DNA from: an uncultured Erysipelotrichaceae bacterium
GTDB lineage: Bacteria; Bacillota_I; Bacilli_A; RFN20; CAG-288
Direction: 5' to 3'
Assembly (NCBI GenBank): GCA_902772915.1
Contig: CACYCE010000051.1
Span: 1 to 39,864 of the forward strand
Length of the DNA stretch: 39,864 bases
The translations under genes and the position numbers were made by a program. The notes under the pieces are model-generated. The model worked only from the letters and a program-made list of their open reading frames with translations. It did no database searches and was not told the origin of the DNA. Every line of letters begins with the position of its first letter. The stretch's first letter is position 1. Positions 5,990 through 17,779 of the stretch are shown piece by piece.

Positions 5990-7303
5990 CTATCTTTCCC
6001 AGACGTCGGAAAACTTCAAAATTTCTCTTTCAGCCTTTAAGGATTTAATGTTTCTAAACATCCTATTTTGATGTCTTTGAAGGTAAGCTGCAATCTCCTC
6101 TCGATTATCTATATAAAGTTGAACGAGATTCTTGTCAATCTTATTCTCTTTTACCATCTCTTCAAGAGCTTTGATAGTCTCATCCATAGAATAAGCATCT
6201 TTATAACTGCGCCCTGCTATCATCGCCGCGATAACATCGGATATAGCGCATATTCTCATAGGTAAATTAATTTCATCTCCTTTTAAATGTTTAGGATAGC
6301 CTGAACCATCTAATCTCTCGTGGTGAGAATAAGCGTATTCAACGACGATTTTATCATTGAAAACATTAGATAAAATCTCTTTGGAATATTCGATATGACG
6401 CATCATTATCATCGTTTCTTCCTTAGTTAATTTACCAGGTTTTTCGAGGATTTCATGGGAAATTCTCACTTTCCCTATATCCCCAAATAGGCAGGCTGTA
6501 TAGATTACGCAAGTCGTGTGTAAATCGAGATTAGTTAACTTAGAAAAGATGTATCCCATCGACGCTGATAATCTAGCGTGATACATAGTTTCAAAGTTGT
6601 AGAATTCAATACAATAAGTGACCATCAACAAATAAGATCTAATTAAATCTCTTCTAAAATAGATAGTCGTCATATAATCGTCAATCGTAGATTTATAAGC
6701 TCCAGATTTAACCTGTTCAATGAGGTTAGTTCTCTCTAGAATCTCAATCATGTCTTCACAGTCTTTAGGAGCAAAATAACTCCCTTTACCACCGTTAATT
6801 AAACTGATAATCTCTTCTGGAGAGAAACCCATACTTATCCATCTATCAACGTGATCGCATAAATTAATCATGACGCCGTATTTGTAATAAGCATCCTTTT
6901 GAGGTCTATCATATCTTCCGTGTTGAAATAAAACTATAGCGGAAAAGTCTTTTAATGGTGAAAAATATTTCAAGAATAAATAAGAAGATAAGGCTCTATC
7001 GTATGAAGTTGAAAAATCAAATTCAGAAATCATCTTGTCATTTGAGGAAGATGATTGCCATATTTTACCAATATCGTGAAATAAAGATGACAAAACCAAA
7101 ATGCGAGTAGTCTTAATATCGTACCCTTGTTTTTTAGCAAGATTGAGAGTGATAAATCCCAACCTTTCACCTTGATCGAGGAAAGATGTTCCGATTTCTG
7201 AGAGCATTTCCCTAATTAAATGCCAGGCATTAGAGACACTAAATAAGGATATAAACTCATCGTATTCATCTTTCGAAAAGTCTTTTAAACCATTTTTCTC
7301 CAT
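5990..7303 (-). CDS. Tandem HD / HD-GYP domain protein, last gene of the glycogen operon
   Basis: The 437-residue protein has two HD-type phosphohydrolase domains. The N-terminal one has FHDIGK with H76-D77, then FQHGRYDRP (H128) and LCDHVDR (D150). The C-terminal one has the HD-GYP hallmark HHERLDGSGYP (327-337) and a PGKLTKEE segment (289-296), but its HD pair is changed to GD (G274-D275). HD-GYP proteins are c-di-GMP phosphodiesterases or related signalling hydrolases; no GGDEF, EAL or sensor domain is present here. It starts 2 bases after glgA with only a weak ribosome binding site, so its synthesis is probably coupled to glgA. Activity and substrate are uncertain because both metal sites look incomplete. 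Confidence 0.82.
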   Translation of the reverse strand: MEKNGLKDFSKDEYDEFISLFSVSNAWHLIREMLSEIGTSFLDQGERLGFITLNLAKKQGYDIKTTRILVLSSLFHDIGKIWQSSSSNDKMISEFDFSTSYDRALSSYLFLKYFSPLKDFSAIVLFQHGRYDRPQKDAYYKYGVMINLCDHVDRWISMGFSPEEIISLINGGKGSYFAPKDCEDMIEILERTNLIEQVKSGAYKSTIDDYMTTIYFRRDLIRSYLLMVTYCIEFYNFETMYHARLSASMGYIFSKLTNLDLHTTCVIYTACLFGDIGKVRISHEILEKPGKLTKEETMIMMRHIEYSKEILSNVFNDKIVVEYAYSHHERLDGSGYPKHLKGDEINLPMRICAISDVIAAMIAGRSYKDAYSMDETIKALEEMVKENKIDKNLVQLYIDNREEIAAYLQRHQNRMFRNIKSLKAEREILKFSDVWER

Positions 7304-7305
7304 TT

Positions 7306-8727
7306 TTATCTACTTAATAACATTTTATATAACTTGATGTATTCTTCAACTTGCTTATCCCAAGAAAAGTCTTCTTTCATAGCGTTTTTAATAAGTGTGT
7401 TCAATTTATTTTTATAGAACATGTTACAAACATAACCTATAGAATAATCAAAGCAATTCTCATCCCAAGAAGCAAAAGCAAAACCAGTCGCTCCTTCGTG
7501 AGAATCATAGTAAGATTTAACAGTATCGTTTAATCCACCGACTTTAGCAACGATAGGTAAAGTACCATAATGCATAGCGATAATTTGACCTAATCCACAA
7601 GGTTCAAATTTAGAAGGCATTAAGAAGAAGTCGCTACCTCCGTAAATGAGATTAGCTAAGCCTTCGGAATAGCCCATATAAATCTTTAGATTCTCAGGAT
7701 ACAGTTTAGCTAAATGCTTTAATTCTTCTTCAATCATGTATTCACCTTGACCTAAAAAAATTAATTTAGCTTTGTTTTTAACAATTTCAGGAACAATTCT
7801 TAATACTCTATCAATACCCTTTTGAGAAGTTAATCTTGAAACTAATCCAAATACAGGAACATCTTCTTCAGGATTCTTAAAGCCCATCTTCGTTAACAAA
7901 GCGACTTTGTTAGCTTTCTTACCTTCTTTGTAAGTCTTGACATTATAATTTTGAACTAATTCTTTATCAGTCTCAGGATTGAAAGAATCATAATCTAAAC
8001 CATTGACGATACCAAACATATCCGACTGACGATATCTGATGACGTTGCCTATGCCATTGAAATCAGTCTGATTATCTAATAATTCATGAGCGTGAGTTAT
8101 AGAAACTGTAGTGATCGCATCACAAGTAGCTATACCTCCTTTCAACATGGAGACCATGTTGTTGAATTTTAACAAGCCATCTGAGTAATAGACGACTGGT
8201 AAATTCAATAAATCTCCTAAAGACATAGGATTCAAATAGCCTTGGAAAGCAGGGTTATGAATCGTCAATAAGGAGCGGAATTTCAAACCTGCATGTGCGC
8301 AAAGAAGAGGAATTAAAGCAGCTTGCCAATCGTGAACGTGAATGATATCAACCTTCATTCCCATGTGAATTACAGCTTTAGCGACGGTCAATTGAAAGAA
8401 AGAAAATCTCTCTGCATCATCACCGTAGCCGTAAATACCATCGCGACCAAAATACTGATCACATTCGACAAAATAGAAATCAACACCTTCTTTTTGATCG
8501 TAAATAATATTCGCGTGAGTCATTCTCCAACCTTGAGCGACATCGAAAGAATCGACCCACTTATACATATCTTTAACTTTCTCTTTACCCTTTCTGTAAA
8601 ATGGTAAAAAGACTGAGACTTTGTGCCCTTTTCTAACTAAAGCTTTAGAAAGTCCCCAAACAACATCGGCGAGTCCACCAGTTTTAACAAAAGGCGAAGA
8701 TTCACCAGCGGCAAATAAAATATTCAT
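7306..8727 (-). CDS. glgA: Glycogen synthase GlgA
   Basis: A GT5 retaining glucosyltransferase that extends alpha-1,4-glucan from ADP-glucose. The protein is 473 residues, normal for bacterial GlgA (about 475-480). The N-terminus MNILFAAGESSPFVKTGGLADV contains the KTGGL ADP-glucose-binding loop at about 15-19. The second Rossmann domain carries GLVSRLTSQKG and the C-terminal EPCGLGQIIAM segment, equivalent to the E-x7-E motif. It starts 2 bases after glgD without a clear ribosome binding site, indicating translational coupling. The order glgC-glgD-glgA is typical of Firmicutes; branching enzyme glgB and phosphorylase glgP are not in the window. Confidence 0.96.
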   Translation of the reverse strand: MNILFAAGESSPFVKTGGLADVVWGLSKALVRKGHKVSVFLPFYRKGKEKVKDMYKWVDSFDVAQGWRMTHANIIYDQKEGVDFYFVECDQYFGRDGIYGYGDDAERFSFFQLTVAKAVIHMGMKVDIIHVHDWQAALIPLLCAHAGLKFRSLLTIHNPAFQGYLNPMSLGDLLNLPVVYYSDGLLKFNNMVSMLKGGIATCDAITTVSITHAHELLDNQTDFNGIGNVIRYRQSDMFGIVNGLDYDSFNPETDKELVQNYNVKTYKEGKKANKVALLTKMGFKNPEEDVPVFGLVSRLTSQKGIDRVLRIVPEIVKNKAKLIFLGQGEYMIEEELKHLAKLYPENLKIYMGYSEGLANLIYGGSDFFLMPSKFEPCGLGQIIAMHYGTLPIVAKVGGLNDTVKSYYDSHEGATGFAFASWDENCFDYSIGYVCNMFYKNKLNTLIKNAMKEDFSWDKQVEEYIKLYKMLLSR

Positions 8728-11036: not shown

Positions 11037-12062
11037 TTAATAAGATAAGATTCCATTGCCACTATCTTCTTCAAATGGCAAAGTCTTGTCATCAGTAAAG
11101 GCATTGACAACTCTAGCAATAGCCGAGTGGAAGGCTACTAAAGTTTCAGCCTTGGTCTCCAAAATCGTAGGAGGAACCTTTTTAGAATAATCGCTGACAA
11201 AATCGAAACTGAAGCCATCGATAAAGATAGTTAATTTCTCACCTATTGAAGTGATGATGACATCAGAACGAACAAATTGATGCATCGAGGAGATTGCTTC
11301 TGCAGTCTTCTTGTTAAAAACGAGATAAATATCTCTGCCTAAAGTTGAATAACAAACAAAGGCGGATAATTCTCTTATATCTCCAAAACCGTATTTTTTA
11401 ATTTCGTTGCCTTCATATTGACGATACGAGATATTTCCAAAAGTCCTCAGTTGAATAAAGGCGTGGGATTTGCCTTTAGGTACTTCAACGGAAATGAAGA
11501 CACCCTTTCTCTTCTTTCCTTCTCTAAAATAATCGTATTGCTTACATTGATATGAAAGAAGAGGGGTTGAAAATTGATAAGAATCTAAGAAAGTCGGAGT
11601 GGAAATATCTACTAAATCCAAACCTTGAACCGAGCCTTCTTGGATAGACTTATCTAAGCCGATACCATTGATTTTAGCTTCTTCCACAAGTAAGGAGAAA
11701 GATTTATTTTCAAACAATTTTTTAAATTTTTTGTTTTGAAAATGGTGAAGAAGAAGAGTACCGACTATAGCGACTATTAAAACCGCTAAGACAATAATCA
11801 TTCGCAACGCTTTATCAATAGAAGAAAAATCAAAGAAATTGCCGCTCCAATCAGGATAAGGAAGAACGCGCAAAGGACTAACTTCTCCAAAAGGCTTAGG
11901 TAAAGAATAATATCCTCGACCAAAAGCTACTAATAAAACGTACAAGAACCAAGTTAACAAAATGCCTAAAAATAATCCGAAGTCACTCCAAAAAGAAACA
12001 CGTTTTAAATGAGTGCGGTATCTTGATAATTCATCTGATTGACTTATGACACTTTTCGCCAT
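11037..12062 (-). CDS. DUF3137-like two-TM membrane protein
   Basis: A 341-residue protein of unknown function. Two membrane segments are visible at about 27-47 and 86-106, separated by an aromatic-rich loop, followed by a soluble domain of about 235 residues. The soluble part resembles DUF3137: RKGVFISVEVPKG, then CYSTLGRDIYLVFNKKTAEAI, then GEKLTIFIDGFSFDF. The gene at 4348-5901 has the same plan with a longer N-terminal tail, so the two are likely distant paralogues on either side of the glycogen operon. No terminator separates it from glgC 69 bases downstream, so read-through into the glg genes is possible. The similarity is judged by eye only. Confidence 0.68.
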   Translation of the reverse strand: MAKSVISQSDELSRYRTHLKRVSFWSDFGLFLGILLTWFLYVLLVAFGRGYYSLPKPFGEVSPLRVLPYPDWSGNFFDFSSIDKALRMIIVLAVLIVAIVGTLLLHHFQNKKFKKLFENKSFSLLVEEAKINGIGLDKSIQEGSVQGLDLVDISTPTFLDSYQFSTPLLSYQCKQYDYFREGKKRKGVFISVEVPKGKSHAFIQLRTFGNISYRQYEGNEIKKYGFGDIRELSAFVCYSTLGRDIYLVFNKKTAEAISSMHQFVRSDVIITSIGEKLTIFIDGFSFDFVSDYSKKVPPTILETKAETLVAFHSAIARVVNAFTDDKTLPFEEDSGNGILSY

Positions 12063-12133: not shown

Positions 12134-12161
12134 AATAAAAAATGGGGCTGAGCGCCCCATT
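12134..12161 (-). terminator. Intrinsic terminator of the jetABC operon
   Basis: AATGGGGC and GCCCCATT form a perfect 8-bp stem around a 5-base loop (12141-12161). On the minus strand it is followed by TTTTATTAG, giving a run of six T with the stem end. It lies 17 bases after the jetC stop, so it should end the SMC operon and isolate it from the DUF3137-like gene and glycogen genes downstream. Confidence 0.9.
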
Positions 12162-12178
12162 ATTTTTAATTTTGCTAC

Positions 12179-15100
12179 TTAGATGCGAGATTTATCTTGA
12201 TAAGTATCGATGTAAGAACGTTTCTTCTTAGCATCGTGATGAGTAACTAAAATCAAATCGACTTCCTTAGATAAGTCTCTCAATTTTTCTGAAGGAGTAG
12301 AGAGAATCGCTTGCAAACCAAACTTTCTCAACAAGCCTACAGCTTCTTTAATTCTGACTCCATCCATCTTGGAGAAAGCCTCATCGAAACACACTAATCT
12401 AATCGAGTTAGAATCAGGATCGTTAGTTCTGTAAAGTTGAGCAAAGGAAGCCAGAATTGAGATGTAGAAAGGAGTTTGAGTTTCACCTCCAGATTGTCTC
12501 TTAAACGATCTAGCTAAAGAAGATTCGGTCTCAGATTCTCCTCTTCTAACTAACAAATCGAAGACTAAATAAGTTCTATAATCAGTAAATTTTTGTACAT
12601 TCTCAATCAATTTTGCTCGAGGATCACCTTCATCATCTCCACTAGGTTCAGTAATTAGAGTAAATAACGAATCCATAGTGTTTTTATATTTCTCTAAATA
12701 GACATCTTCAGCATCGCCGATATTCAACAACAAATCATCAGTAATCATCTGATAATATTCATAATAATCTTTGTTGGGTTCCACTGAGAATCTATAGTGA
12801 TCACGACCGAATTTAACAGCTTGTAAAGCTTGGTTCAATTCATCGATTTGCATCTTGATAGTCTGGAAGGAATTACGGAGATTATAAATGAAATTATCTT
12901 TAAATTCCTTGATGGCTTTCTTGTGAGAATCTTCGATTTTAATTAAATAAGAAGGCAATAAAACTTCTTGTAAATTCTTCAATTCGTTATCGAATTCCGC
13001 GTTGGAAGTCAAATTCTCAGTATCGTAAGAGAGATTGTAAGTGATGACATATCTCTTTCGTAAATCTTTAAGTTTATTCTCCGCAGCAGTCTTACCTTGT
13101 TGACGAACAATGTAATTTTGTCTAGCTTGTCTAAGAATATCTTCAAAAGATAATTGAGATAGAGCCTTTTGATAGAAAGGATCGAATTTAGTTTCGACTA
13201 ATTCTTGATCGAAAGTCGTCAACTTCTCTCTCAAAGAATTAACTAGAGCTTGTTGAGCAGGAATAGATTTCTCTTTCAATTCCTTATTGACCGCGAGCAA
13301 TCCACCTTGTTCGAGGACTAAATCATTCTTCTCTTTAGCAATAGATGCTAAATCGATATCAATTAATCTAATCTTCTCATCGAAAGATGAAATATCTTTC
13401 AATTCACCTTCGCTAAGTTGCTCATCTAAATGATCTATTTCATCATTTAATTCATCGACTCTCTTCATATCATTGATATCAGCAATAAAGGTGCTAGTTT
13501 CAGAAGTAGATAAAACTTCTAAAGAAGCGATGTTCTTTAAGTGATTATTTAAAGTTATGTAAAGTTCCAATTTCTTAGATAAAGAAGAATATTCATCTTT
13601 CTTAGTTAAAGCTGATTCAGAAGATGAATGAGTACCAATGAAGGAAATCTCCGCTCTTCTTTCATTTAAATACAAAGAAGCGAAATTTCTATAACCAGTA
13701 CAATTAGGCAATAAACCATTGCCGGATTCTCTAGCTTCAGCGAAAGTTTCACACTTTCTCACATTTCCTAATAAGAAATTAGTGTAAGCCCTAGCTCCTT
13801 CGTGATCAGTTTCAATTTCTTCGGCAACAGAATTAGGTTTAGCTTGATAATCTCTATCGATTAGCTTTTCAGAATCGACTATAGAAATAGAATAATAGCC
13901 GTAATCTCTGCAGATTGTCGCTAAGATTTTACTCGCTTCTTCGTAATATCTTTCTTGAACGAAGAAATTGAATTTTTGATTGAAGATAAAAGCTTCAATA
14001 GTCTTAGTCCATCTCTTATTCTTAATATCGACTAAGTCGCAATAAGAAGAAATTTGAGCGTCAGAATGTCTCTCTTTTAAAGAAGATTCTAAAGCTGCTC
14101 TAACTGCTAAATAATTAGAAGGGAAAGGCTTTCTACCTTCGTTAATTTGATCGATTTCACCTTCTAAAATTCCCTTCTCTTTATTTAAGGAGATAATAGA
14201 AGAATCTAAATCTCTAATTAAACCTTGAACATTAGAGTGCAAAGATGCCATCTCTAATTGGAATTCAGTTAATAAATTGGCGTTGAGAGTTCTATTATTT
14301 ATTCCATCGAAGACATCTTGAGAAGTAGATGTAAATTCACTAGATATATCTTTAAATTTCTCAAGAGCTTCTTCTTGATTTTCTTCTAAGAAAGAAGAAT
14401 CAGTTTGAGTTAATAAAGAAGATAAATCATTTAGTCTTTGCATGTAAGAAGAAATGTAATTCTTCAAAGTGGAAGAGAGGAAATTGTAATTGTTTTCTAA
14501 AGTAGAAATCTTCTCTTGAACTGAATTCTTCTTATTTACTATGGAATTAGATAAGGAGAAGGAAGAAGAATTGACTTTCTTAGCAAAATAAGAATCTTTT
14601 TCAGATTTCAATTCATCCTCTTGTCTAGTTTTAATTCCTAATTCATCTCTAATTTGAAGAATTCTCTCTTCGTTTGATTCTAAGGTGTTAGTTAACTTAG
14701 CAAGAGTCTCAGAAGCAGAATCGAAATTGACTCTATCCATGACATAGTCAGCCATATTTAAAGAATCGAGAGCGCTTTTATAATTAGTGTAAGCTTGGCA
14801 TACGTTATTCAAAGCGTCAATCTTAACTTGAATCTTCTTAGCTTCGATTTCTAAAATCTTATATTGCTCGATGTTAGTTTGCATCGCAGTAATATCGATG
14901 TTGTAATCTAAATCGCAAACGAATTCAGTAATGAATTTAGAAATATCATTAATAGGAGTGAAGGAGACCGCTTTTTTAAATAAGGAGAAGAATTTTTCAG
15001 GGACATCTCCTAAATAATTCTTCAATTTATCTTTATAAGCTGAATTAGTATCGAAGAATTCATAATCGTTCTTCCCTAAACTCTCCTGGCAATATTTCAA

Positions 15101-15574
15101 TAATTCTTTGTAAGTTAGAGGTCGGGGTTGAGACGCATCTAGCAATTCTTTATTAGTGAAATCATTCGAAGGGAAAGAAGTATTTAAATAGAAGAAATGA
15201 TGCTCTTCTGAATCATCTTCGAAGCAATCGAAAACAATACCTAAAGTAAAGGGTTTTTCAGTAATGGTATCGAAGAATTCTAAAGCGACGTAAGAAGTAA
15301 ATCTCCCCGGTCTTAAACACAAAATTTGACCTTGAGCAGTTTCACCAGTTTCGCATCTTAAATAGCCTTTTAAAGTACGACCGGTTCTATCGTTAGCAGC
15401 TTTGTTGAAATTTCTTCCGGTAGTATCACCTAATAAAACGATTTGAATAGCATCGATGATAGTTGATTTACCAGTACCGTTAGCACCAGTTAAGAAAGTC
15501 GAATTTTTAACATCGAACTTCTCGTTGGAAAAGAGGTGCCAGTTAATAAGTCTAACTGAAGTTAATTCTTTCAT
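12179..15574 (-). CDS. jetC: Wadjet/MukB-like SMC ATPase (JetC)
   Basis: An SMC-like ATPase of 1131 residues. The N-terminal head has Walker A GANGTGKST (30-38), preceded by RLINWHLFSNEKF, the start typical of JetC/MksB proteins. The middle is mostly heptad-like coiled coil (about 230-470 and 660-900) around a non-coiled hinge region. The C-terminal head carries the ABC signature QSGGE (1027-1031) and Walker B LVCFDEA (1060-1066). In Wadjet and MukBEF complexes this protein forms the ATP-driven DNA loop-extruding ring with JetA and JetB. The ATG overlaps the jetB stop (TAATG), and GGAGG is just upstream. A chromosomal Smc would be longer and have a different hinge. The intact motifs suggest an active ATPase. 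Calling it JetC rather than MksB rests on partner similarity. Confidence 0.85.
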   Translation of the reverse strand: MKELTSVRLINWHLFSNEKFDVKNSTFLTGANGTGKSTIIDAIQIVLLGDTTGRNFNKAANDRTGRTLKGYLRCETGETAQGQILCLRPGRFTSYVALEFFDTITEKPFTLGIVFDCFEDDSEEHHFFYLNTSFPSNDFTNKELLDASQPRPLTYKELLKYCQESLGKNDYEFFDTNSAYKDKLKNYLGDVPEKFFSLFKKAVSFTPINDISKFITEFVCDLDYNIDITAMQTNIEQYKILEIEAKKIQVKIDALNNVCQAYTNYKSALDSLNMADYVMDRVNFDSASETLAKLTNTLESNEERILQIRDELGIKTRQEDELKSEKDSYFAKKVNSSSFSLSNSIVNKKNSVQEKISTLENNYNFLSSTLKNYISSYMQRLNDLSSLLTQTDSSFLEENQEEALEKFKDISSEFTSTSQDVFDGINNRTLNANLLTEFQLEMASLHSNVQGLIRDLDSSIISLNKEKGILEGEIDQINEGRKPFPSNYLAVRAALESSLKERHSDAQISSYCDLVDIKNKRWTKTIEAFIFNQKFNFFVQERYYEEASKILATICRDYGYYSISIVDSEKLIDRDYQAKPNSVAEEIETDHEGARAYTNFLLGNVRKCETFAEARESGNGLLPNCTGYRNFASLYLNERRAEISFIGTHSSSESALTKKDEYSSLSKKLELYITLNNHLKNIASLEVLSTSETSTFIADINDMKRVDELNDEIDHLDEQLSEGELKDISSFDEKIRLIDIDLASIAKEKNDLVLEQGGLLAVNKELKEKSIPAQQALVNSLREKLTTFDQELVETKFDPFYQKALSQLSFEDILRQARQNYIVRQQGKTAAENKLKDLRKRYVITYNLSYDTENLTSNAEFDNELKNLQEVLLPSYLIKIEDSHKKAIKEFKDNFIYNLRNSFQTIKMQIDELNQALQAVKFGRDHYRFSVEPNKDYYEYYQMITDDLLLNIGDAEDVYLEKYKNTMDSLFTLITEPSGDDEGDPRAKLIENVQKFTDYRTYLVFDLLVRRGESETESSLARSFKRQSGGETQTPFYISILASFAQLYRTNDPDSNSIRLVCFDEAFSKMDGVRIKEAVGLLRKFGLQAILSTPSEKLRDLSKEVDLILVTHHDAKKKRSYIDTYQDKSRI

Positions 15575-16239
15575 TATTCTTCACCTCCATGTTGGTTGAT
15601 AAAATCATCTAAACCATTAGGAGCTTGGACTCCTAAAGGAGATATTTCTTTAATAGAATTGTACAATGCATTAAGTTTAGCATTAGATATAACGTATCTG
15701 ATCGAAGGTAAAATGTAGAATCCCCAAGAAGTATCAGAGAAAGACCCTTGAGCAATACAGACGATTTGATACATCGCTAAAGTTCTCATCGCACTAGCTA
15801 AAGTGTTAGTAGAAAATCTTCTTGAAACACTAGTCACCCCTAAATCTTTAAGTAATATTTTTAAAGAAGTAGAATCGCAGTAGACTTCGTTGGTATTAGG
15901 AGAAGAAGCAATCTTTCCTTCATAATAAGAACGCAAAGCGTAAATTACTAAAGTTGTGACTGAATCGATTCTTATCTTGTTAATTTCATCAGGAGAAGAA
16001 ATAAAGATAACTCCAGCATCGTCATCCTTGTTAAGTTGAATGCCGATGTAATCTAAATATTCACTAACTAAATCGTAATGAGCTTCAATAAATAAATAAG
16101 TGGAAGAAATCTTGTTAATCTTGCTAGCGCGATCGTAGATTTTTCTAACTATATAACAATGGAAAAGCAATTCGGAAACGGCTTTTCCAAATTCGTTTTG
16201 GTTTGCTCGAGTGAGCTTTTCATAATTCTCATCAAACAT
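15574..16239 (-). CDS. jetB: Wadjet/MukE-like KITE subunit (JetB, DUF4194)
   Basis: A 221-residue protein matching the DUF4194/JetB type of MukE-like winged-helix (KITE) subunits that bind the kleisin and DNA in Wadjet and Mks complexes. Visible elements are an all-helical N-terminus, an acidic GIQLNKDDDAGVIFISS segment (about 80-96), a conserved TTLVIYALRSYYEGK helix (104-118), and a winged-helix-like SRRFSTNTLASAMRTLAMYQIV region. The ATG overlaps the jetA TGA stop (ATGA), and the stop overlaps the jetC start, so all three genes are translationally coupled. On its own the sequence is divergent; the assignment is strengthened by its position between a JetA-like and a JetC-like gene. Confidence 0.8.
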   Translation of the reverse strand: MFDENYEKLTRANQNEFGKAVSELLFHCYIVRKIYDRASKINKISSTYLFIEAHYDLVSEYLDYIGIQLNKDDDAGVIFISSPDEINKIRIDSVTTLVIYALRSYYEGKIASSPNTNEVYCDSTSLKILLKDLGVTSVSRRFSTNTLASAMRTLAMYQIVCIAQGSFSDTSWGFYILPSIRYVISNAKLNALYNSIKEISPLGVQAPNGLDDFINQHGGEE

Positions 16240-17708
16240 CAGTTATTCGCGCTCCTTCCTTTTCTTGTAAATTTGTAATTGGGTATGAAATAATTCCCAT
16301 TTTCAATCTTAGAATCTAGTTTCTCTAGGGTGTAGAACATATCGTTAAATTCGCCTCTAACTGTCGCTAGAATTAAAAGAATTAAATCATCCATAGTATT
16401 TAGTTCCACATCTTTAGAAGTGATAGTTCTCCTATCTTTAAATTGCTTCAACATGAAGTTTTCTATAGCTTCTAAAGAAAATTGATTTTCATCGTTAATT
16501 AATTCGTCTAGAGATGAATCGAAATCAGAATACATATCATCTAGTGGAAGAGGATCTAATTCTTCTTTTTCAACTCTATTTTTAATCATCGTCAAGGAAT
16601 CAGAATCGACGAATCCTTGATGGTAAATAGAGACTGTAGAATTAAGCTTATCGATTATATCAATCTTATCCATCTCTAAATCAGATTGAGGATTTTCTCG
16701 ATCCAAGGCTTTAGCGACTTCTAAAATAATCGCATCAATCTTACCTTTGATAGTCTTATCTGAAGAAGATAGATAAGTGACTTTCTTTTGAACTGCTTGA
16801 GTGTAGGAAGCGTTAGCTTTATCAATCTCCACAAAAGCCGAATTCAATCTTGAGAAGATATCGATAGTCTCTTGTAAGATTCTATTAACTTCAACATTTA
16901 CTAGAGATGATTTCTTCCCTACGTAGTTAGGATCGTATTTAGCTTGAATGACTAACTTAGCCATAATGCGAGGGTCATGTTGCCATCTATGTAAGATATT
17001 GATAACAGGTAAAGAATATAAACCTAACGAATCGTAAGTCTTCATTGGGTGGTAGACTTTATCTCTGACATCCGATTTAAAGATATCGAAATGTTGCCTT
17101 AAAACTTCATTAGGATCAAATACGGTAGATAAGTTATGTCCGAATACGCAAATGGAGTGATGCAACAAAGTGACGTTAAGTTCCAATTCATCAGCGTTCT
17201 TTCTCGCCGCTAACAAAGATCTAAACATGTAGTCATCTTCCTTTTCATCTTCTAAAGATAATTCGGAATAAGTTTGATGGACTAAAGGAACATACAAAGA
17301 AGTGTCAGAGGACAAATCGGATATCAACTGCAACATCTTGATTGAATATGAAGGTAGATATAAATAGTCGACGTTGTTAGCTAAATCTCTCTCCACAGAA
17401 ATCCAACCGGTGTTAACCAACTTCTTGAAGATGTAATTAATTTTAGAAGTTATCACTGAATCAGAAAGTTCATAAGGGATATTTTCATCCTCATTCTTGT
17501 CATCGAGTTTATCTAATTCGACATCGAACAATTTAAATAAATCTTCACCGTGATCATACAAGGCTTTAGTATAATCGCTTCTTTTAATCTTAGTCTTGTA
17601 AATTTTTAAAGTCTCAAAAAGAGTCATCAATGCAAAAGAGTAAACCGCCTTGTATTTACGTGATAAAACCGAGAAGAAATTCTCAGGAAGCCTATCGAAT
17701 AAATTCAC
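16239..17708 (-). CDS. jetA: Wadjet/MukF-like kleisin subunit (JetA)
   Basis: A protein of about 489 residues resembling JetA, the MukF-like kleisin that bridges the SMC heads in Wadjet. It starts VNLFDRLPENFFSVLS, the family's N-terminal pattern (LFxxLPxNFF), followed by winged-helix and helical segments, including an acidic stretch around DKNEDENIPYEL and the coiled region EVNRILQETIDIFSRLN. The frame extends to a TTG at 17723, but I prefer the GTG at 17706-17708: GAGG lies 9 bases before it and the family N-terminus starts there. The stop is TGA and overlaps the jetB ATG. It is the first gene of the operon, directly behind the promoter in the palindrome at 17744-17767. Confidence 0.78.
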   Translation of the reverse strand: MNLFDRLPENFFSVLSRKYKAVYSFALMTLFETLKIYKTKIKRSDYTKALYDHGEDLFKLFDVELDKLDDKNEDENIPYELSDSVITSKINYIFKKLVNTGWISVERDLANNVDYLYLPSYSIKMLQLISDLSSDTSLYVPLVHQTYSELSLEDEKEDDYMFRSLLAARKNADELELNVTLLHHSICVFGHNLSTVFDPNEVLRQHFDIFKSDVRDKVYHPMKTYDSLGLYSLPVINILHRWQHDPRIMAKLVIQAKYDPNYVGKKSSLVNVEVNRILQETIDIFSRLNSAFVEIDKANASYTQAVQKKVTYLSSSDKTIKGKIDAIILEVAKALDRENPQSDLEMDKIDIIDKLNSTVSIYHQGFVDSDSLTMIKNRVEKEELDPLPLDDMYSDFDSSLDELINDENQFSLEAIENFMLKQFKDRRTITSKDVELNTMDDLILLILATVRGEFNDMFYTLEKLDSKIENGNYFIPNYKFTRKGRSANN

Positions 17709-17743
17709 TTTGTTTATCCTCAAAAAATCCTAAATAAAATTTA

Positions 17744-17767
17744 CTCTTAAATTATATAATTTAAGAG
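17744..17767. repeat. Perfect 24-base palindrome over the jetABC -10 box
   Basis: The half-site CTCTTAAATTAT is followed immediately by its exact reverse complement, with no spacer. The centre contains TATAAT on both strands. It lies 36 bases before the jetA GTG. A zero-spacer palindrome on a -10 box is the usual form of a repressor operator, but no regulator gene lies next to it; as RNA it would form only a poor hairpin with no usable loop. Confidence 0.85.
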
Positions 17768-17779
17768 CTGACTTAACAA
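17751..17779 (-). promoter_or_regulatory. Promoter of jetABC
   Basis: On the minus strand TTGTTA (17774-17779) and a perfect TATAAT (17751-17756) are separated by exactly 17 bases. Transcription would start near 17744, leaving a leader of about 36 bases before the GTG at 17708. The -10 box lies inside the 24-base palindrome, so binding of a repressor there would block transcription. Confidence 0.7.

What the first reader, a model, noticed from the sequence alone, without database searches (positions are those of the whole stretch)
12141..17779. JetABC-type SMC complex without a JetD nuclease, in a housekeeping neighbourhood
Three translationally coupled genes encode a JetA-like kleisin, JetB-like KITE protein and JetC-like SMC ATPase with intact Walker A, signature and Walker B. 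Known Wadjet systems carry a fourth gene, jetD, the TOPRIM nuclease that cuts plasmids. Here the operon has its own promoter and a strong terminator 17 bases after jetC, and no gene with JetD features is on either side; the next gene is a DUF3137-like membrane protein. The neighbours are ftsK, plsC and glycogen genes, with no sign of a defence island. This may be a Mks-like condensin used for chromosome organisation, or a Wadjet that recruits a nuclease encoded elsewhere.
Basis: partly seen in the sequence, partly recalled or inferred. Interest (0 to 1): 0.7.

Follow-up and report, generated by a model that had tools for sequence, protein, structure and literature searches.

The report
Nuclease-less Wadjet core replacing bacterial condensin
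The three genes are the DNA-loop motor of a known anti-plasmid system without its DNA-cutting part; in this bacterial order, and separately in the Acholeplasma lineage, the motor is kept in genomes that have lost the normal chromosome-folding machine, so it has probably taken over that housekeeping job.

Summary
jetA-jetB-jetC (17708-12179, minus strand) are type I JetABC proteins with intact ATPase motifs; neither the locus nor the 93%-complete genome has a JetD.

The survey went further. Across the order, JetA is in 48/48 genomes outside one family (3/11 in that family); the conserved copy is solo, sits in a neighbourhood kept across three families, and its tree tracks RpoBC (Mantel r=0.69). 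JetD is over cut-off in 3/59 genomes: twice beside a second JetA/JetABC copy, once as an orphan. No genome in the order has Smc or ScpA.

In 296 genomes of the class, 71 have JetA without Smc/ScpA, 127 have Smc/ScpA without JetA, 10 have both. On an RpoBC tree Smc was lost twice (one clade rejected, AU p=0.002): in this order, and in a clade that includes Acholeplasma laidlawii PG-8 (identified by its exact chromosome length), which also carries solo JetABC.

Best reading: a plasmid-defence SMC core that lost its nuclease and serves as resident chromosomal condensin in place of Smc-ScpAB. Function is inferred. Against it: 88 genomes have neither system, and only two independent Smc losses exist. 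No report of this was found in the searchable papers.

The parts
17751..17779 (-). promoter-like site TTGTTA-17-TATAAT upstream of jetA
   Evidence: consensus scan; not more frequent than in shuffles
16239..17708 (-). jetA, kleisin (489 aa from GTG 17708; 494 aa from TTG 17723)
   Evidence: Pfam JetA PF18982 7.5e-65; PADLOC JetA1 4e-89; start from GAGGAT just before GTG
15574..16239 (-). jetB, KITE subunit (221 aa)
   Evidence: Pfam DUF4194 5.8e-14; PADLOC JetB1 5e-62
12179..15574 (-). jetC, SMC-like ATPase (1131 aa); Walker A from residue 30, signature SGGE from 1028, Walker B from 1059
   Evidence: PADLOC JetC1 PDLC00519 1018 bits; PDB best hits are JetC chains 9qxt, 8dk2, 8as8; motifs
12141..12161 (-). 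intrinsic terminator-like stem-loop after jetC

Best explanation
This is a type I Wadjet (JetABC/MksBEF) SMC core that has lost the JetD nuclease and become the resident chromosomal condensin of this order, in place of Smc-ScpAB, which the order lacks. JetC dimers, closed by the JetA kleisin and JetB KITE dimers, would use ATP to extrude loops and so compact and separate sister chromosomes, as MukBEF does in enterobacteria; without JetD, completing a loop on a circle has no cutting consequence. Shown here: gene content, intact ATPase motifs, absence of JetD and of Smc/ScpA, vertical inheritance, conserved neighbourhood, a second independent case in the Acholeplasma lineage. Inferred: loop extrusion and the chromosomal role.
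For: No JetD_C in the genome. JetA in 51/59 relatives, 48/48 outside family f5. JetD over cut-off in only 3 of 59: G055 beside a second JetABC, G048 beside a broken-up second JetA, G053 an orphan. ScpA in 0/59 over cut-off; every SMC_hinge match in relatives is weak (20-31 bits, canonical Smc 75 or more), and most lie beside jetA in jetC-sized frames. Class survey: 71 JetA only, 127 Smc/ScpA only, 10 both. Own-order solo copies form one clade (support 1.0) whose distances track RpoBC, r=0.693, p=0.0001. PlsC and amylase-like genes upstream or glgC/glgD/glgA-like genes downstream are kept in families f1, f3 and f5. Walker A K, signature and Walker B D/E are kept in all order copies aligned. Smc lost twice on the RpoBC tree; one clade rejected, p-AU 0.0018. 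Precedents: a review says MksBEF of P. [quoted passage not shown]).
Against: No functional data. 88 of 296 genomes, several at 97-100% completeness, have neither Smc/ScpA nor JetA, and the 62 of them searched gave no full-length JetC, so cells of this kind can live without any recognised condensin; in f5 the genes are patchy. Only two independent Smc losses exist, so event counting cannot give significance. Solo JetABC also occurs beside Smc in 7 genomes (six of family f14, one of f20), so it does not require loss of Smc.
Confidence: 0.7

Rival explanations
1. It is still an anti-plasmid system: JetABC senses small circles and recruits an unrelated nuclease, or blocks plasmids simply by compacting them.
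For: The proteins belong to Wadjet type I families. Most positions conserved in JetD-linked JetC copies are also kept in the order's copies (78%), so no clear loss of a JetD-binding surface was seen.
Against: No JetD in the genome; fixed position and vertical descent, unlike the sporadic distribution described for Wadjet (PMC10586767); no defence genes among the neighbours scanned; where JetD occurs beside jet genes in this order it is with a second copy.
Confidence: 0.14
2. It is an accessory MksBEF-like complex with a narrow role (for example at replication forks or in repair), while chromosomes of the order are segregated without any true condensin.
For: Family f5 (in part) and families f12, f19 and f23 lack both Smc and JetABC yet are near-complete genomes. 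ParB matches in the order are weak or absent.
Against: 48/48 retention outside f5 with intact ATPase motifs points to a role that is hard to lose in most of the order.
Confidence: 0.13
3. A degenerate Wadjet in decay after recent loss of JetD.
For: JetD-less copies are common in the class, and G048 carries a broken-up second JetA copy beside a JetD frame with an internal stop.
Against: The solo state is as old as the order, copies are full length and catalytic residues are kept.
Confidence: 0.03

Closest known systems
Wadjet type I (JetABCD / MksBEFG / EptABCD)
   Same: JetA, JetB and JetC are homologous over their full length and in the same gene order
   Different: no JetD nuclease; fixed chromosomal position; Smc-ScpAB absent from the host
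MksBEF of Pseudomonas aeruginosa
   Same: Wadjet-like SMC core without nuclease; [quoted passage not shown]
   Different: P. aeruginosa also has SMC-ScpAB (PMC7485682); here it is the only SMC complex found
MukBEF of enterobacteria
   Same: an SMC-kleisin-KITE complex that replaced Smc-ScpAB (PMC10586767); JetC matches Pfam MukB at 29.6 bits, cut-off 23
   Different: JetC belongs to the JetC1 families by a very wide margin; unrelated host lineage
Smc-ScpAB
   Same: the role proposed here
   Different: no ScpA match and no canonical SMC hinge in the order

Membership tests
Wadjet type I (JetABCD) | JetA kleisin, JetB KITE and JetC SMC in one operon | tested here: met
Wadjet type I (JetABCD) | JetD TOPRIM nuclease | tested here: not met
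   no PF09983 in the genome; 3 of 59 relatives over cut-off, none next to the conserved copy
Wadjet type I (JetABCD) | plasmid restriction | not testable with these tools
   needs an assay
Wadjet type I (JetABCD) | sporadic, defence-island distribution | tested here: not met
   48/48 in the order outside f5, conserved neighbourhood, no other defence genes near
MukBEF/MksBEF condensin superfamily | SMC ATPase with intact Walker A, signature and Walker B, plus kleisin and KITE, no nuclease | tested here: met
MukBEF/MksBEF condensin superfamily | chromosome organisation in vivo | not testable with these tools
   only indirect: Smc-ScpAB absent, genes vertically kept
Smc-ScpAB | ScpA kleisin and canonical SMC hinge in the genome | tested here: not met

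The most novel reading that the evidence does not exclude
Plasmid-defence SMC cores were converted, at least twice independently within Bacilli, into the sole chromosomal condensin after or along with loss of Smc-ScpAB: once in this uncultured order, once in the lineage of Acholeplasma, where a cultured species makes it testable.
Probability: 0.55. Interest if true: 0.85.

Novelty: new variant of a known kind. Interest (0 to 1): 0.73.

Why it matters
Reviews speculate that defence SMC complexes gave rise to chromosomal ones (MukBEF, MksBEF), but the switch is hard to catch. Here the states sit side by side: family f14 has Smc with solo JetABC and, in some genomes, JetABCD as well; two clades have solo JetABC and no Smc; others have lost both. 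If the solo complex folds the chromosome, the defence-to-housekeeping switch becomes an experimental question, in an organism as accessible as Acholeplasma laidlawii. It also means that annotation pipelines may call a housekeeping complex 'anti-phage Wadjet'.

Tried and rejected
A JetD-contact motif (IFDR-like; LFDRLP at the start of JetA) is kept equally in solo and JetD-linked copies and is not diagnostic. A search for positions conserved with JetD but lost in several solo lineages gave only two scattered columns. A divergent JetC or second SMC in the 'neither' genomes was looked for with the JetC1 profile: only P-loop or coiled-coil sized matches. phmmer of JetA and JetB alone against the PDB found nothing relevant. 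A test of association by independent pairs has only two events and cannot reach significance; the Fisher value for genomes (odds ratio 14.6) is inflated by relatedness and is not used as proof. The paper on JetD contacts (PMC9637719) is not held.

Full report
Check of the observation. PADLOC and Pfam place the proteins in type I Wadjet families at very high scores, and the nearest solved structures of JetC are JetC chains, ahead of MukB. The neighbours are ftsK, plsC, an amylase-like enzyme and glgC/glgD/glgA-like genes, with no other defence gene among the ten neighbours scanned apart from hits explained by generic FtsK/HerA and HD domains. The window's assembly (G000: 1.27 Mb, 93% complete) has no JetD_C match.

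JetD is not merely missing from an incomplete assembly. In 59 genomes of the order, JetA occurs in 51 and JetD over cut-off in 3. In G055 the JetD follows a second JetABC operon; in G048 it lies beside a broken-up second JetA copy; in G053 it is an orphan with no jetABC within the 15 kb read. The copy that corresponds to the window's is solo in every operon examined.

The canonical condensin is also missing. ScpA is over cut-off in 0 of 59 genomes, although the same search finds it in 9 of 14 control genomes and in fast-evolving mollicutes of the class. SMC_hinge gives only weak matches in the order (20-31 bits, against 75 or more for canonical Smc), and most of them lie beside jetA in frames of jetC size. 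In 296 genomes of the class, the counts are: JetA without Smc/ScpA 71, Smc/ScpA without JetA 127, both 10, neither 88 (source). The ten with both belong to f14 and f20. All thirteen jet operons of these ten genomes were read: four in f14 and two in f20 have JetD directly after jetC, six in f14 and one in f20 are solo.

Descent. A rooted tree of concatenated JetA+B+C puts the order's solo copies in one clade with support 1.0, separate from solo clades in f26-28, f16, f10 and f14 and from the JetD-linked copies. Within the order, distances track RpoBC (r=0.693, p=0.0001, 16 genomes), and plsC and amylase-like genes upstream and/or glg genes downstream are kept in f1, f3 and f5. Three f5 copies (G058, G187, G281) group instead with JetD-linked copies and look like later acquisitions. 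The deepest branches of this tree are weakly supported, so the number of JetD losses is not settled.

Species tree. RpoB+RpoC of 69 genomes give two Smc-less clades, each with support 100: the window's order, and a clade of f10, f12, f16, f19, f21, f23, f26, f27 and f28. Holding all Smc-less genomes together is rejected (p-AU 0.0018); the fewest changes are two. Contig lengths in f16 and f21 equal published chromosomes (PMC4221730): G144 is A. laidlawii PG-8 (1,496,992 bp), G222 A. palmae J233 (1,554,229), G208 A. brassicae 0502 (1,877,792), G235 'Ca. Phytoplasma australiense' rp-A (879,959); lengths. A. laidlawii has solo JetABC, with no JetD in the 19 kb read around it, and no Smc, ScpA or JetD match in the genome.

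Mechanism. The ATPase residues are intact, so an active motor is expected. Wadjet is reported to cleave circles through JetD activated by JetABC (PMC10586767); without JetD the same motor would be left with DNA folding alone. The same review states that MksBEF of P. aeruginosa, likely JetABCD minus JetD, acts in chromosome organisation, and that MukBEF replaced Smc-ScpAB. P. aeruginosa keeps SMC-ScpAB, and MksBEF is described as typically found together with SMC-ScpAB or MukBEF (PMC7485682). What differs here is that no other SMC complex is found. Steps shown: gene content, losses, descent. Steps inferred: loop extrusion, chromosomal role.

Limits. The 'neither' genomes show that loss of both is tolerated somewhere, so the complex need not be essential. 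Only two Smc losses exist, so the association rests on two events plus vertical retention. HMM absence is not proof of absence, although the searches pick up fast-evolving relatives. The order's name is not given by the tools. Of ten literature searches in the held open-access library, none turned up a report of Smc replacement by JetABC in these bacteria; most subscription papers and preprints are not held.

Noticed in passing
class survey; families f12, f19, f23, most of f21 and 18 f5 genomes: Near-complete genomes (many 95-100%) with neither Smc/ScpA nor JetABC: bacteria apparently without any recognised condensin. Cause unexplained.
   Followed up: partly
G000 and order relatives: ParB (HTH_ParB) matches are weak in the order (G000 7e-14, f3/f5 mostly 1e-20 to 1e-25, several none) against about 1e-35, usually two copies, in many Smc-bearing families: the ParB system may have relaxed with loss of Smc.
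   Followed up: partly
L210 (G053:C54) 6082-7728: Orphan JetD-like frame of 549 aa with no jetABC within the 15 kb read.
   Followed up: partly
L206, plasmid NZ_CP143948.1: A 252-kb plasmid of Agathobacter rectalis carries jetABC with no JetD in the next genes.
   Followed up: no
L095, L097, L099, L100, L102, L103: Family f14 genomes carry solo JetABC together with Smc-ScpAB; three of them (G086, G097, G114) also have a full JetABCD.
   Followed up: partly
window 11037-12062: A 341-aa protein with likely membrane helices and no reliable Pfam family sits after the jet terminator and is kept near jetC in G002, G003, G007 and G008.
   Followed up: no
G235 (f16), C1: Several open frames up to 1185 aa with similar coiled-coil matches to the JetC profile: a repeated gene family in this phytoplasma.
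   Followed up: no
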